This document shows positions 8,198 to 64,000 of a stretch of DNA of 64,000 nt, piece after piece; the first letter of the stretch is position 1, and every line of letters begins with the position of its first letter. Origin of the DNA: a virus; the IMG/VR virus record IMGVR_UViG_3300036790_000231, positions 27,256-91,255 of that record; one strand, 5' to 3'. A program made the position numbers and the translations under genes. The notes beneath the pieces were generated by a model that ran no database searches, had not been told where the DNA came from, and saw only the letters and a program-made list of their open reading frames with translations.

Positions 8198-8596
8198 GCC
8201 TTCAGGATTAGGTCCAATATGAGCAATTTTTTCACAATTAGTAGGAGCTAATTTTTTTAACTCAAATTTATATAATTTTTTACCAACTCTGATCTCTTCT
8301 GGGCTAGCAAGAAGCTCATGTTTTTTCAAAAGTATTATATCTTGTTCATATCCAGTTTCATCTATATCTCTCAAAATACTCTTTATTTTCTGAGTTTCTT
8401 CGCATTGAATAAAACTTCTTTCTTGAGAAGCTGGCCTAGCTTTTAAAAGATAGTTGGTAATTCTATCATTCTCGTGTATTAAAGCTACTACAAGAAAAGC
8501 AATTACTATCATGCAAATTAAAACCGCTATTGAAATTGGATTCTCTTTACAAAACCTTTTCAAAAAGTTTGCTCTAGCTCTCATAATACTGTACAT
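8189..8596 (-). CDS. single-pass membrane protein
   Basis: A 135-residue protein with a basic N-terminus, one strong membrane helix (SIAVLICMIVIAFLVVALI, about residues 22-40) and a charged, Lys-rich outer part. This layout resembles an i-spanin or another small lysis-region protein, but no pairing gene proves it. Its ATG overlaps the stop of the upstream frame as TGATG. Confidence 0.6.
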   Translation of the reverse strand: MYSIMRARANFLKRFCKENPISIAVLICMIVIAFLVVALIHENDRITNYLLKARPASQERSFIQCEETQKIKSILRDIDETGYEQDIILLKKHELLASPEEIRVGKKLYKFELKKLAPTNCEKIAHIGPNPEGLH

Positions 8597-8709
8597 CAGA
8601 TCACCCTAACAATTTCACCTATACAAAGAAGAGTCAGAAAAAAGCCAGTTACTAATAAGGTTATTTTGAAATCAGACCAAAACTGTCCACGTTTTATTGG
8701 ACGCTTTTT
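8596..8709 (-). pseudogene. membrane-helix frame without its own start, -1 to the gene before it
   Basis: This stretch encodes KRPIKRGQFWSDFKITLLVT followed by a hydrophobic end, and its stop is coupled (TGATG) to the next gene, so it looks translated. No sensible start is seen. It is in the -1 frame of the 92-residue ORF just upstream, and one more A in the A5 run at 8705-8709 would join them into one three-helix protein. Confidence 0.45.
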
Positions 8710-8972
8710 GTTTTGTTTTCTGTTAGTTCGTGATCTGATGGGGTAGGAGCTAAATGCTCCAAACTCTCCGTAGCTTTCATTATTCGCCGGAAAGAATCCA
8801 ACCAAAGCGCTGGAGGTACTGAAATGAACCACAGCCCCAGGAGGACAATTATCCACTGAGCGTCCGTTACCTGAAATATCTCCCGATACTCTATATATAG
8901 ACCTATCCCTATGGAAGCCAATCTTACTACGGTATTTACCGCCGTTTTTAAATATCCCAATAATTTTATCAT
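8694..8972 (-). CDS. holin-like membrane protein (possibly 3'-truncated by a frame change)
   Basis: A 92-residue protein with two predicted membrane helices (about residues 15-31 and 37-58) and a charged tail, a holin-like plan. The stop comes right after an A-rich tract, and membrane-type coding continues in the -1 frame to 8596. Next to it are a single-pass membrane protein and, beyond, the tail genes, a common place for lysis genes. A holin role is inferred only from topology. Confidence 0.55.
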   Translation of the reverse strand: MIKLLGYLKTAVNTVVRLASIGIGLYIEYREIFQVTDAQWIIVLLGLWFISVPPALWLDSFRRIMKATESLEHLAPTPSDHELTENKTKSVQ

Positions 8973-8994
8973 TCATTATAACTCCAACAAAAAA

Positions 8995-9042
8995 AGCACG
9001 ACATAATTTTCCCCTTTCTCTTTGAGCCGCCTATGCCGTGCT
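8995..9042 (-). terminator. possible terminator after the virion operon
   Basis: On the minus strand AGCACG (9042-9037) can pair with CGTGCT (9000-8995), followed by seven T. The loop is long (36 bases), so this is a weak call. It lies directly after the last tail gene. Confidence 0.35.
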
Positions 9043-9048
9043 CTATTT

Positions 9049-9420
9049 TTATACTAATGGAAATAACTTATTGTCAAAACTAAATACTGTTTCTAAAGTA
9101 ACAGCTAAGCTAATCTCTATTTTTCCTTCCGTATTTATTATAAAATCTCCTATTACTCCACCTATATTTGCATCAATTAATTGTTGCTTTGTTGGATGAT
9201 ATCCTGAAGGTAATTTGGCAATTGCAGCTTCTTTAGATACAGCACCAGATGATTTAATTACGCCTCTTAAATAGACTATTCCATTCGATCCCAATGAACA
9301 TTCTGCATTTGAATATGGTGTTCCTTTATTAGAAATTCCAGTTTCTAATGTAATAGCTTTCCATTCTCCTAAAGAAGAGCTTCCTACTCTAGACCCACCA
9401 GAGCTAGCCATAAAATACAC
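9049..9420 (-). CDS. tail fibre or receptor-binding-type protein
   Basis: A 123-residue protein (second start at residue 4, MASSGGSRVG). The stretch IVYLRGVIKSSG...LPSGYHP is the pattern of the beta-sandwich at the C-terminal ends of phage tail fibre proteins, where a strand with 'LRG' is followed by 'LP.GY.P'. It is the last gene of the virion operon and overlaps the previous gene by 17 bases. It would sit at the tail tip and may contact the host surface. Confidence 0.65.
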   Translation of the reverse strand: MYFMASSGGSRVGSSSLGEWKAITLETGISNKGTPYSNAECSLGSNGIVYLRGVIKSSGAVSKEAAIAKLPSGYHPTKQQLIDANIGGVIGDFIINTEGKIEISLAVTLETVFSFDNKLFPLV

Positions 9421-36905: not shown

Positions 36906-36924
36906 ATGCCCCAAATTGGGGCAT
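36906..36924 (+). terminator. hairpin in the RlpA-like leader
   Basis: ATGCCCC and GGGGCAT pair around AAATT, followed by a T-rich tail broken by A. It sits about 30 bases after the predicted transcription start, so it could act as an attenuator. It is also a possible terminator on the minus strand. Confidence 0.45.
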
Positions 36925-36977
36925 TTATTTTATTAGGGTCACGACATACGCGCGGCCAAAACTAGGATTGGAGAAGG

Positions 36978-37374
36978 ATGTATCTTTCTTCTAGCTACAC
37001 TACTTTCTATTTCACTATTCTCTACAAATCACAATCATCATAAATCTCATCACAAAATAAAAAATAAATTTATTGTAGTTCATACTCACAAGAAAAAAAG
37101 TTCAGAATTACTTCAGCATTATGAGGTAAGCTCTACTTGTTATGATCAAGGAACAACTACTGCATCTGGTAGCCCCGTATTTTTAGGTGAGGTAGCAAAT
37201 AATTTCCTTCCTTTAGGAACCCATATTAGATTAGATCATCCCGCCTTTGGTAGGAGAGAATTTACTGTGTTAGATCATATAGGATGGGGAAGCGAATTAG
37301 ATATATATAACCCAAGCTATGATTCCTGTGTAGAATGGGGAAGACGCGAGATAGGTTTTTGGACTTTGAAGTAA
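36978..37374 (+). pseudogene. RlpA/3D-like secreted double-psi beta-barrel protein, start in wrong frame
   Basis: The reading frame from 36982 to 37374 encodes IFLLATLLSISLF, an evident signal peptide, a His/Lys-rich spacer, and a domain TCYDQGTTTASGSPV...LPLGTHIRLDH...TVLDHIGWGSELDIYNPS of the RlpA/3D type, which acts on or binds peptidoglycan. No ATG, GTG, TTG or CTG lies in this frame after the upstream TAG. The ATG at 36978, with GGAGAAGG just before it, is one base out of frame: removing T36981 would give M-I-F-L-L. So it is a frame mutation, an assembly error or a nonstandard start. It has its own promoter and terminator. Confidence 0.65.
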
Positions 37375-37394
37375 GATTTATAAAAATATCAATT

Positions 37395-37421
37395 AAAAAG
37401 GGCGCTTAATGCGCCCTTTTT
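37395..37421. terminator. bidirectional terminator between convergent operons
   Basis: AAAAAGGGCGC (37395-37405), loop TTAAT, GCGCCCTTTTT (37411-37421). It has A and T tracts on both sides, so it ends both the RlpA-like gene and the minus-strand accessory operon. Confidence 0.9.
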
Positions 37422-37447
37422 ATAATTACAATATGAAATCAAACATT

Positions 37448-37705
37448 TTATCCTTCTAAAAACTCTCTTGCTCTATTAACAGCATCAGAAAATTTTTGAT
37501 GCTTTACATTTAAAAATGGTTTTTCCTTTACAGGAGATCTTTTTATTGGATAATTTATATATTCTTCATAGTACCAAGGCCATGAATACGGGTTCATACG
37601 TATTCTTTTTCCACAATAGGGACAATATGGCGATTCATAACATCTACATATATGATGACATTCATACATTTGGTTCTTCTCTTTTAAGAATTTCTCCTTC
37701 TTCAT
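37448..37705 (-). CDS. zinc-ribbon-like small protein
   Basis: An 85-codon frame; ATG at 37669 (MYECHHICRCYESPYC) is a likely alternative start, as the 37705 start would overlap the vWA gene by 44 bases. It has C-x4-C-x5-C-x2-C-G in the N-terminal part, so a zinc knuckle is probable. It is the last gene of the accessory operon. Function unknown. Confidence 0.55.
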   Translation of the reverse strand: MKKEKFLKEKNQMYECHHICRCYESPYCPYCGKRIRMNPYSWPWYYEEYINYPIKRSPVKEKPFLNVKHQKFSDAVNRAREFLEG

Positions 37706-39188: not shown

Positions 39189-39400
39189 AATTCTTCTAGA
39201 GCTATTTTCAATTCATCTACTTCCATATTCCGAAATCTAATACTTTTCTTTCTTAGTCCCTTTCTCATTTCTAATCTACTACCGCAGTTGTAAGTAACAG
39301 GAGGATTACAAAATAAATCATCTGTCATAGTAATCCTTACATATACTGATATTCTATATCCTCTTTTTAACAACCACTTATATCTAAGTAATTTAATCAT
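39185..39400 (-). CDS. small basic protein
   Basis: A 71-residue protein, basic, MIKLLRYKWLLKRGYRISV at the start. It overlaps the LysRS gene by 4 bases (ATGA-type), so it is coupled to the synthetase. No domain seen. Confidence 0.5.
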   Translation of the reverse strand: MIKLLRYKWLLKRGYRISVYVRITMTDDLFCNPPVTYNCGSRLEMRKGLRKKSIRFRNMEVDELKIALEEL

Positions 39401-40638
39401 CTCATCGTCGGGAAAGCTGTAACCTCACGAATAGATTTGCTTTTAGTAAGAAGCATTACTAATCTATCTATACCGATCCCAACTCCAGCAGTTGGAAGCA
39501 TCCCATATTCAAGTGATTCAATATATGATTTATCATATGGATTAGCTTCTTCAAAGATTTCGTCTTTATTATTCTCATCAACTACTCGATTAGATGTGCC
39601 TTCATTCCATCTCTTTGCTTGTTCAAGAGGATCATTCAAATCATTAGCGCCACTAGCTATCTCTACTCCATCAATATATAACTCCCATGCTTCTGAAATA
39701 TCAGGATTGTCCTTACTCTTTCTAGAAAGTGGCCAATCGTCAGAAGATAAACTTCCTACAAAATTTAAATCTGGTATTTTGTCTGAATCATTGCAACTAT
39801 AAAAAACATGTTCAATAAGCTGTTGTGTAAAAACCTTCATTTCACGATGATCAACACAAGTAGCAAAGAACTCAACCATAGAAAACTCCGGGCTATGGTT
39901 AATAGATATGCCCTCATTTCTAAATACCTTACCTATATGAAAAACCTTATCAAACCCTCCAACTAAATATCTCTTTAGATATAGCTCAGATGAAATTCTA
40001 AGATAAAAATTCTCACTTAATGCATTGTGATGAGTAACAAATGGTCTAGCAGTAGCTCCTCCATAAACAGGTTGAAGAATTGGTGTTTCAACCTCCAAAT
40101 AACCTGATAATTCAAGGAAATTTCTGATTGATTTTATTATATTTGATCTAAGTATAAATAAATCTCTAGTTTGTTTATTAATCGCCATCTCTACCTCTCT
40201 ATGGCGAAATCTAAAATCATCATTCATAATAATATTCGGTAAATCTCTAACTACCTTAGAAAGTATTGTAATTTCAATAGCTTCTATAAATTCATGTTCA
40301 TCTTTAGGATGATTTTTCTTATATCCTTCTATTCCAATCATATCTCCCGTAGCGAGACTATTACATATAAATCCTATATTTTCTTCCTTACAGTGTATCT
40401 CAATAGATCCTGTTGAATCTGCTATATCTATAAAAGTTATTTTGCCATGATATCTAATTGATGTAACCCGTCCAGCTATTGCAATTAGTTCAGGTATTGA
40501 TGAAGTATAAAACTTTACAGTTCTAATTGTTATTCTATTTCTAAAATTTGCCGGGTAGGGATCAATTCCGGCATTCATTAATTCATCAATCTTCTTAATC
40601 CGACGTTCTCTCATTTGTTCTTCAGATACACCGCTCAC
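39397..40638 (-). CDS. class II lysyl-tRNA synthetase-like protein
   Basis: A 413-residue protein with an N-terminal OB fold (residues about 38-130) and a class II catalytic core. Motif 1 is around 168-190 (SGYLEVETPILQP), motif 2 is VFRNEGISINHSPEFSMVEFF (F239 R240), and motif 3 is AGVGIGIDRLVMLL (384-397), all as in bacterial LysRS. It is shorter than E. coli LysRS (about 505). E218 and E256, which face lysine in LysRS, are kept, but Y280 is F258, N424 is S329, F426 is A331 and E428 is D333 (E. coli LysU numbers from memory). So it may use a different amino acid or be a variant LysRS. A tRNA-Lys is not found here. Confidence 0.88.
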   Translation of the reverse strand: MSGVSEEQMRERRIKKIDELMNAGIDPYPANFRNRITIRTVKFYTSSIPELIAIAGRVTSIRYHGKITFIDIADSTGSIEIHCKEENIGFICNSLATGDMIGIEGYKKNHPKDEHEFIEAIEITILSKVVRDLPNIIMNDDFRFRHREVEMAINKQTRDLFILRSNIIKSIRNFLELSGYLEVETPILQPVYGGATARPFVTHHNALSENFYLRISSELYLKRYLVGGFDKVFHIGKVFRNEGISINHSPEFSMVEFFATCVDHREMKVFTQQLIEHVFYSCNDSDKIPDLNFVGSLSSDDWPLSRKSKDNPDISEAWELYIDGVEIASGANDLNDPLEQAKRWNEGTSNRVVDENNKDEIFEEANPYDKSYIESLEYGMLPTAGVGIGIDRLVMLLTKSKSIREVTAFPTMR

Positions 40639-60763: not shown

Positions 60764-61003
60764 TTGGCGCTGCGCGTGAATTTCAATTTTTATGCATCTC
60801 CCGGCAATGTTGAAAACGAGACATTAAGCGAGCCTAAGACTCTCGCTGAATGGCAGGAAAAGACGAAAGAAGCCAAGGAAGAATTAGGTGGATTCGTTTT
60901 TTGTAAAAGGGCTCCAGATCCGGCCGATCTTTCAAAAGAACCAGAATTACTTGTTAACATTGAAAATGTTAGAAGTGTTCTCGTAGTAGAAGGAGGAGTA
61001 TAA
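60764..61003 (+). CDS. small hypothetical protein (TTG start)
   Basis: A 79-residue protein from TTG 60764. SEPKTLAEWQEKTKEAKEEL is a charged helix. GGAGAC precedes it. It is the last phage gene before the terminator. Confidence 0.5.
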   Translation: MALRVNFNFYASPGNVENETLSEPKTLAEWQEKTKEAKEELGGFVFCKRAPDPADLSKEPELLVNIENVRSVLVVEGGV

Positions 61004-61037
61004 TATATGGAAGACATTGTAGGATCATAAAATATGA

Positions 61038-61063
61038 AAAGAGCCCCGAAAGGGGCTCTTTTT
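61038..61063 (+). terminator. intrinsic terminator, right end of the phage operon
   Basis: AAAAGAGCCCC, loop GAAA, GGGGCTCTTTT followed by T. Strong and close to the stop of the last gene. Confidence 0.9.
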
Positions 61064-61156
61064 TATGGAGATATAGAACTATCCAGATCTTCATCCTATA
61101 TCCAAATGGCGTTGGCCCCTTAATTGATCTGGACCATCTTGGCGGGAACAAGCTTA

Positions 61157-61234
61157 TCTAGAGACTTTTACTTGCCCAAATAGGTAGCAGGAAAATCAAA
61201 AAAGTATGCACGTACTTTTTCAACTCTCTCTAGA
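61157..61234. ncRNA. RNA-like hairpin element A
   Basis: Outer stem TCTAGAGA (61157-64)/TCTCTAGA (61227-34), inner hairpin AAAAAGTA/TACTTTTT (61199-206 and 61213-20). Between them ACTTTTACTTGCCCAAATAG. The same design with other bases is found in element B. Confidence 0.55.
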
Positions 61235-61276
61235 CCTATGTTCGCGAGGGACATTCAAAAGCGTGGCAGAAAGCTA

Positions 61277-61347
61277 TTGAGAGACTTTCACTTTTGCCAA
61301 TAAGTAGTCTCAAAAAATCAAGTCTTTTACTTGACTCCTTCTCTCAA
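61277..61347. ncRNA. RNA-like hairpin element B
   Basis: Outer stem TTGAGAGA (61277-84)/TCTCTCAA (61340-47), inner AGTC/GACT, and the linker ACTTTCACTTTTGCCAATAA similar to element A. 42 bases separate A and B. The rest of 61,064-61,479 shows only a CTA repeat (61,380-61,398) and GTCACA repeats. Confidence 0.55.
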
Positions 61348-61479
61348 CTTATCGTGTCTCGGTAGGCTGCGTCCCGTATTGCTACTACTACTACTACTAG
61401 CACACTTCTCCCATGAAAGGGGGTAGGTTTTGACCTCGTCACATACGTCACAAACTATTGGAGGCGGTAGGTTCTGGAA

Positions 61480-61788
61480 GTGCGCAAACCGAAGACGACG
61501 GGATCAGCCGGTATCGGCATCTGCATCCTGCTCGCGATCCTTCCCTGGCGAGGCATAATGCTGCCTACATGGGGATTCATTCTCGGCTTGGTCGTCGCGG
61601 TCGGTTTCATTGCCTACTCCATTGTCTCGTTACTTCTTGGGCTTCTTTCAAGACGGCGCACCAGCAGGGGGTCGCCGATCGACAACAGCGACTTGATGAT
61701 CACGCTCTACGGAGTACAAGAGGAGGAACGCGAGAAGCGTGCGCGTCGAATGGCCAACGAACAAATCGACCGCGAAGCAAGAATTTAG
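61480..61788 (+). CDS. membrane protein of the bacterial-like flank
   Basis: A 102-residue protein (GTG start) with two helices (IGICILLAILPWRGIML and WGFILGLVVAVGFIAYSIVS) and a basic, charged tail. GC-rich and unlike the phage genes. A GC-rich dyad (CCCCC/GGGGG) follows its stop. Confidence 0.6.
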   Translation: MRKPKTTGSAGIGICILLAILPWRGIMLPTWGFILGLVVAVGFIAYSIVSLLLGLLSRRRTSRGSPIDNSDLMITLYGVQEEEREKRARRMANEQIDREARI

Positions 61789-61828
61789 GCTATCCCCCAC
61801 AAGGGGGTAGATGTGCTACAGTAGGTGA

Positions 61829-63615: not shown

Positions 63616-64000
63616 ATGGAGGAGTTGCTAGCCGGTGTCCGTGCGAAGTTGGATAGGGCAAATAGCCAATTGGAAACTCTTGAACGCGAAATCAAGGCTT
63701 TTCGCAAACGTCGGACATATCGCATCGAAGGTGAGTTTGAGGCTCAACGCAGCGGATATGTCTTCCGGCTTGATGTTATCGAATGGCCACCGATAGCTTG
63801 GGGCGTCCTTAGCGGAGAGATCGTCCACAACGCCCGTTCGGCTCTTGATAACCTCGTTTGGCAACTTATCCTTCTCAACGGACAACAACCGGGGGAATGG
63901 AGTAGCTTCCCTATCTGGGATTCTGGGAAGGCCGAGACATTCCTTTGTGAGTCCCAGCGTCCACCTATGAAAAAACGACGGCCCGGTAAACTCTATGGAG
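63616..64000 (+). CDS. bacterial-type hypothetical protein (5' part)
   Basis: The gene runs off the right end after 128 codons. HNARSALDNLVWQLILLNG and SFPIWDSGKAE are typical of a family common in soil actinobacteria (...CLHNLRSALDHLVW...). ATG 63616 has no strong SD. It supports the view that this end is host-like DNA. Confidence 0.75.
   Translation, partial: MEELLAGVRAKLDRANSQLETLEREIKAFRKRRTYRIEGEFEAQRSGYVFRLDVIEWPPIAWGVLSGEIVHNARSALDNLVWQLILLNGQQPGEWSSFPIWDSGKAETFLCESQRPPMKKRRPGKLYG

What the first reader, a model, noticed from the sequence alone, without database searches (positions are those of the whole stretch)
61157..61347. Two adjacent RNA-like elements with compensating stems
Elements A (61157-61234) and B (61277-61347) share a linker (ACTT-TTGCC/GCCC-AATAAGTAG-like and AAAATCA) but differ in the stems: TCTAGAGA/TCTCTAGA against TTGAGAGA/TCTCTCAA, and AAAAAGTA/TACTTTTT against AGTC/GACT. 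Changes on both sides that keep pairing are the mark of a selected RNA (or DNA hairpin). It lies in the gap between the last phage gene and the bacterial-like flank.
Basis: seen in the sequence. Interest (0 to 1): 0.65.

Follow-up and report, generated by a model that had tools for sequence, protein, structure and literature searches.

The report
Paired pseudoknot RNAs in a phage
A soil-type phage carries, in a gap between its genes, two side-by-side copies of a sequence whose stems have changed in step so that both still fold into the same knotted RNA, probably read from the strand opposite to the neighbouring genes; its job is unknown and no relative was found elsewhere.

Summary
A (61157-61234) and B (61277-61347) are diverged tandem copies (p<0.001) whose 8-bp closing stems pair perfectly in both, with two double changes. 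From 5': AUARGU just before P1, P1, a 14/11-bp hairpin (P3), ACYUAU pairing back to AUARGU, a 15-nt A-rich linker, then the other strand of P1. All 51 scorable cells pair, and 9 pairs changed on both sides between the copies. A minus-strand model built from A alone finds B at 39.6 bits, against 29.3 for a plus-strand model and 14.5 for sequence alone. The seven G-U pairs are all on the minus strand. A bidirectional terminator (61037-61062) would end a roughly 350-nt minus transcript. The 'bacterial flank' is not the phage's end: the contig closes on itself and carries an IS1595 transposase there. No Rfam match, and no relative in two full sister phages, IMG/VR pattern scans or 232 bacterial genomes of one order. 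Everything rests on two copies in one genome. Best reading: an orphan, tandem pseudoknotted phage ncRNA; a decoy or antitoxin-mimic function is a guess.

The parts
61270..61355 (-). Unit B, pseudoknotted element, first on the presumed minus transcript
   Evidence: R3 match 39.6 bits, E=2.8e-7; counted in A10
61150..61242 (-). Unit A, pseudoknotted element, second on the presumed minus transcript
   Evidence: Template of R3; fold z -2.07 on minus strand; counted in A10
61347..61352 (-). Unit B pseudoknot helix, 5' side AUAAGU (pairs with 61300-61305)
61300..61305 (-). Unit B pseudoknot helix, 3' side ACUUAU
61340..61346 (-). Unit B P1 5' arm (pairs with 61278-61284)
61278..61284 (-). Unit B P1 3' arm
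61313..61339 (-). Unit B P3 hairpin (11 pairs, loop AAAAG)
61285..61299 (-). Unit B A-rich linker UGGCAAAAGUGAAAG between PK 3' side and P1 3' arm
   Evidence: Sequence
61234..61239 (-). Unit A pseudoknot helix, 5' side AUAGGU (pairs with 61180-61185)
61180..61185 (-). Unit A pseudoknot helix, 3' side ACCUAU
61227..61233 (-). Unit A P1 5' arm (pairs with 61158-61164)
61158..61164 (-). Unit A P1 3' arm
61193..61226 (-). Unit A P3 hairpin (14 pairs, loop CGUGCA)
61165..61179 (-). Unit A A-rich linker UUGGGCAAGUAAAAG
   Evidence: Sequence
61037..61062 (.). Strong hairpin with T-run on both sides, 11 bp: ends the plus-strand operon and would end a minus-strand transcript (bidirectional terminator)
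61394..61404 (-). Weak match (TGTGCTAGTAG) to the group's recurrent TGTGCTACA motif; possible promoter of the minus transcript
   Evidence: Best site of 61000-61600 but only rank 145 in the genome
61082..61133 (.). Further 8-bp inverted repeat TCCAGATC/GATCTGGA between unit A and the terminator; not shown to be a third copy
   Evidence: similarity to A not significant, p=0.18

Best explanation
The gap holds a small non-coding RNA gene read from the minus strand: start somewhere beyond 61355 (possibly near 61387), unit B, unit A, then the bidirectional terminator at 61062-61037, about 350 nt. Each unit folds into a pseudoknot. A 6-bp helix (AUARGU/ACYUAU) interlocks with the 7-8 bp P1, with a 14/11-bp hairpin (P3) between them and an A-rich single strand crossing the knot. 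SHOWN: two diverged copies, with pairing kept by changes on both sides in all three helices. INFERRED: minus strand (from G-U pairs and model scores), transcript and ends, and function. Most likely mode of action, as a guess: the RNA works in trans as a two-site binder that occupies a protein, such as a host RNA-binding protein or a defence or toxin RNase, in the manner of the pseudo-ToxI RNA of phage PhiTE. It is not a member of that family.
For: Copies related, p<0.001. P1 has two double changes; neutral chance about 0.0004. R3, built from A only on the minus strand, finds B at 39.6 bits, E=2.8e-7; plus-strand R1 gives 29.3 and sequence-only R2 gives 14.5. A10: 51/51 cells paired, 9 double-changed pairs, slid controls at most 57%. 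Separate nulls: PK+P1 0.002, P3 0.00007. All seven non-WC pairs are G-U on the minus strand. The 361-nt minus stretch including the terminator folds at z -3.5, 0 of 100 shuffles as good. Terminator scored on the minus strand. The gap is the second largest uncovered stretch (476 nt) of the genome by an ORF-based count.
Against: Only two sequences, from one genome. The P3 part of A10 was fitted by the model, so its counts lean towards the structure. No copy in two full relatives. No recognisable sigma-70 promoter on either strand, and only a weak motif match. Plus-strand-only hairpins after P1 exist and contain U-G pairs that favour the plus strand, although they do not align between A and B. 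There is no evidence at all on the binding partner.
Confidence: 0.4

Rival explanations
1. The same pairing acts on the plus strand: a three-way junction plus a following small hairpin, transcribed by read-through past the operon terminator or as leader of the 102-aa gene at 61480.
For: P1 and PK are Watson-Crick on both strands. Plus-strand model R1 finds B at 29.3 bits, 15 bits above sequence alone. P3 keeps three double changes in that fit. Small hairpins after P1 have U-G pairs on the plus strand (sequence).
Against: The minus-strand model scores 10 bits more, though the models differ in span. The inner stem shrinks to 8-9 and 5-6 bp on the plus strand. A strong terminator at 61037-61067 lies upstream, with no promoter found between.
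Confidence: 0.2
2. A DNA-level element: hairpin or cruciform-forming tandem repeats used as an origin, packaging or protein-binding site, or ends of a mobile element.
For: Two inverted-repeat units in tandem in a gap beside an IS1595-family transposase gene; TIR-like sequences at 61401-61425 and 61788-61811 (seen beside L005 repeats).
Against: The conserved extension of P3 consists of G-U/G-T pairs on one strand only; DNA-binding sites would be expected to keep sequence rather than pairing. A/B lie outside the TIR-like sequences. The sister phages lack them.
Confidence: 0.15
3. A pair of cis-acting RNA processing, stability or attenuation hairpins at the convergent 3' ends of the two phage operons, with no function in trans.
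For: Position at the 3' end of the plus operon, facing the minus operon that ends just beyond the contig join; a bidirectional terminator next door.
Against: A pseudoknot with conserved sequence in its A-rich linker is more than a processing or terminator hairpin needs; not kept in relatives.
Confidence: 0.2
4. Chance: a decayed duplication whose pairing survived by accident.
Against: Neutral probabilities of about 0.0004 for P1, 0.002 for PK+P1 and 0.00007 for P3; the model built from A finds B far above the next window match (39.6 against 13.5 bits, setting aside the reverse strand of A itself).
Confidence: 0.05

Closest known systems
pseudo-ToxI RNA of phage PhiTE (PMC3475682) and type III antitoxin RNAs ToxI/AntiQ/CptI (PMC5086642)
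   Same: Phage-borne (PhiTE) or otherwise, non-coding, tandem copies, H-type pseudoknot, terminator after the repeats; A-rich single strand in the pseudoknot (as described for CptI)
   Different: Type III units are short (36 nt for ToxI) and near-identical; here they are about 86-93 nt, 120 nt apart and about 76% alike over the aligned 33 nt, with an added 11-14 bp hairpin. No ToxN-type toxin was found in the genome (weak control)
Structured RNA families of Rfam 15
   Same: Structured RNA in a phage intergenic gap
   Different: No family reaches its gathering score over the region, and lax hits are terminator-like sRNAs lying on the 61037-61067 hairpin or weak
Pseudoknotted ncRNA of DRT2 reverse-transcriptase defence (PMC12039810)
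   Same: Pseudoknotted ncRNA linked to phage-host conflict
   Different: No reverse transcriptase in the whole record

Membership tests
Type III antitoxin RNA / pseudo-ToxI | Tandem repeats of a pseudoknot | tested here: met
   Two units, pseudoknot kept with two-sided changes
Type III antitoxin RNA / pseudo-ToxI | Short (36 nt in ToxI), near-identical repeat units | tested here: not met
   Units of 86-93 nt, 120 nt apart, about 76% alike over the aligned 33 nt
Type III antitoxin RNA | ToxN-family toxin gene after the terminator | tested here: inconclusive
   No PF13958 match in the record, but no control genome rang either; the minus strand beyond the terminator is antisense to the 79-aa phage gene
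tRNA or tRNA-like gene | Cloverleaf detectable by ARAGORN or Rfam tRNA | tested here: not met
Any Rfam 15 family (ribozymes, riboswitches, tmRNA, phage ncRNAs) | Score at or above the curated threshold | tested here: not met
TnpB/Cas12f-guided omega RNA | Associated TnpB gene | tested here: not met
   No PF07282 match in the record, control genomes ring
Retron / DRT / DGR RNA | Associated reverse transcriptase | tested here: not met
   No PF00078 match in the record, control genomes ring

The most novel reading that the evidence does not exclude
A previously undescribed class of phage small RNA made of tandem hairpin-bearing pseudoknots, transcribed against the neighbouring operon, which neutralises a host defence or RNA-binding protein of actinobacterial (Solirubrobacterales-like) hosts.
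Probability: 0.15. Interest if true: 0.75.

Novelty: new variant of a known kind. Interest (0 to 1): 0.45.

Why it matters
If real and transcribed, it is an orphan structured RNA in a phage group with almost no relatives in databases. Two diverged copies in one genome already show which helices are under selection, which gives a ready-made SHAPE, deletion and pull-down target. Phage RNAs with tandem pseudoknots are known to defeat a bacterial suicide system in one case (pseudo-ToxI), so a second, unrelated design would be of interest.

Tried and rejected
Plus-strand three-way junction as primary structure: kept as a rival, scores lower. Element at 61082-61133 as a third copy: similarity not significant. 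tRNA pseudogenes: no match. Homologues by DNA pattern in IMG/VR: none; two hits inside coding genes (43-46); some searches gave 32 loci that the model does not confirm. Homologues by neighbouring genes: single-protein scans with the 79-aa gene and FtsK found none; capsid protein found two full sisters and a fragment, in which neither BLASTN, Smith-Waterman nor the models find a copy. 232 genomes of the order of one IS1595-bearing genome titled Solirubrobacterales: none by DNA or model, with no positive control. Large gap of 580-750 nt near the capsid genes in all three phages: the sequences do not align. Phage collection BLASTN: only short weak matches, mostly over the terminator hairpin.

Full report
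Setting. The window is positions 27256-91255 of a 91,255-base IMG/VR virus record. Structural genes are read leftwards and a second set rightwards from about 45 kb. The rightward set ends with a 79-aa gene at 60764-61003, followed by a strong hairpin with T-runs at 61037-61067. Window 63874-64000 is identical to contig positions 197-323, and a 266-aa open frame runs through the join, so the contig closes on itself. The 'bacterial-like flank' is therefore inside the closed contig. It carries a gene with an ISXO2/IS1595 transposase domain, whose best relatives are in genomes titled Solirubrobacterales and Actinomycetota. The first 196 bases of the contig are a rearranged junction (61432-61530 joined to the reverse of 61704-61813), so the exact state of that stretch is uncertain.

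Observation. The stems are as described. A and B are diverged copies. With two changes on each arm, keeping all eight P1 pairs has a chance of 0.4%; under neutral divergence of 20-40%, eight pairs kept with at least two double changes has a chance of 0.03-0.04%.

Structure. A covariance model from A alone, drawn on the plus strand, finds B at 29.3 bits; sequence alone gives 14.5. Folding of the minus strand suggested a longer inner stem, and a minus-strand model from A alone finds B at 39.6 bits, E=2.8e-7; the next match outside A/B has 13.5 bits. The two plus/minus models do not span the same bases, so the 10-bit difference is suggestive, not proof. The minus-strand fold of the wider region paired AUAGGU, just before P1, with ACCUAU in the supposedly single-stranded bulge; in B the same places read AUAAGU and ACUUAU. 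With P1 this makes a pseudoknot. Counted on the model-made alignment: 27 pairs, 51 of 51 cells paired, 9 pairs changed on both sides, 1 of 500 shuffles as high, and sliding the partner by 1-3 columns gives 40-57% paired. Separate nulls give 0.002 for PK+P1 (aligned without gaps inside the helices) and 0.00007 for P3 (whose gap placement was fitted). The seven non-Watson-Crick pairs are all G-U on the minus strand. PK and P1 are strand-neutral; the strand call rests on P3.

Expression. No sigma-70 consensus site was found. A motif TGTGCTACA/TGTTCTACA is over-represented in the three sister phages, with TTGACA at a promoter-like distance in a few cases; the best site of 61000-61600 is on the minus strand at 61404, but only rank 145 in the genome. 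The 361-nt minus stretch to the terminator folds better than all 100 shuffles (z -3.5), which includes the terminator hairpin. Transcription is not shown.

Relatives. Two full sisters (93.6 and 91.4 kb; capsid protein 72% and 67% identical) and a 21-kb fragment were found. Homologues of the 79-aa gene lie in both full sisters, but no copy of A/B was found in them. Pattern scans of IMG/VR gave no confirmed copy. 232 genomes of one order gave none, though without a positive control. Rfam: none. The evidence thus rests on two copies in one genome.

Function. The features (tandem pseudoknots, A-rich linker, own terminator) recall type III antitoxin RNAs and the PhiTE pseudo-ToxI RNA that suppresses ToxIN (PMC3475682, PMC5086642). 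Unit size, divergence and the added hairpin differ, so it is not filed there. No reverse transcriptase or TnpB lies in the record; absence of ToxN is not well controlled. A two-site protein-binding RNA is my best guess (about 0.4 for the whole statement; about 0.75 for conserved minus-strand pairing alone).

Noticed in passing
Contig G000 join: window 63874-64000 = L042 197-323; L042 1-196: The contig closes on itself with a 127-base overlap inside an open frame; its first 196 bases join 61432-61530 to the reverse of 61704-61813, a rearranged or misassembled junction at the transposase cargo.
   Followed up: partly
Intergenic DNA of G000, G001, G002; e.g. window 61812, L042 1049, G002 4094, G001 80139: Nine-base motif TGTGCTACA (also TGTTCTACA) occurs 25 times (38 with the variant) in three sister phages against about 0.34 expected per strand and genome; often in tandem or inverted pairs; a few have TTGACA at promoter distance (extended -10?).
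   Followed up: partly
L042 about 964-1020: tRNA/tmRNA-like 3' end (GGGTTCGATTCCCATTGGCTCCA) with acceptor and T arm but no proper anticodon arm, next to the cargo region; could be an attachment-site remnant. No integrase was recognised by eye among the nearby frames.
   Followed up: partly
L046 10816-11531 (G002): Element with 30-nt, 97% complementary terminal inverted repeats carrying a tRNA-Leu (TAA) gene and a fragment similar to the window's IS1595-type transposase.
   Followed up: no
window 61401-61425 and 61788-61811: Two sequences resembling the terminal repeat beside the related transposase in L005, both in the same orientation; no right end was found.
   Followed up: partly
window 36915-37661; G001 80709-81319; G002 8510-9091: Large stretches without ORFs of 45 aa or more in all three sister phages at similar distance from the capsid gene; the sequences do not align.
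   Followed up: partly
window 39397-40638: Phage frame that reads like a lysyl-tRNA synthetase (by eye), beside five phage tRNA genes in the window.
   Followed up: no
G002 79815-81439: The FtsK-like gene is in two separated open pieces in this sister phage, whole in the others.
   Followed up: no
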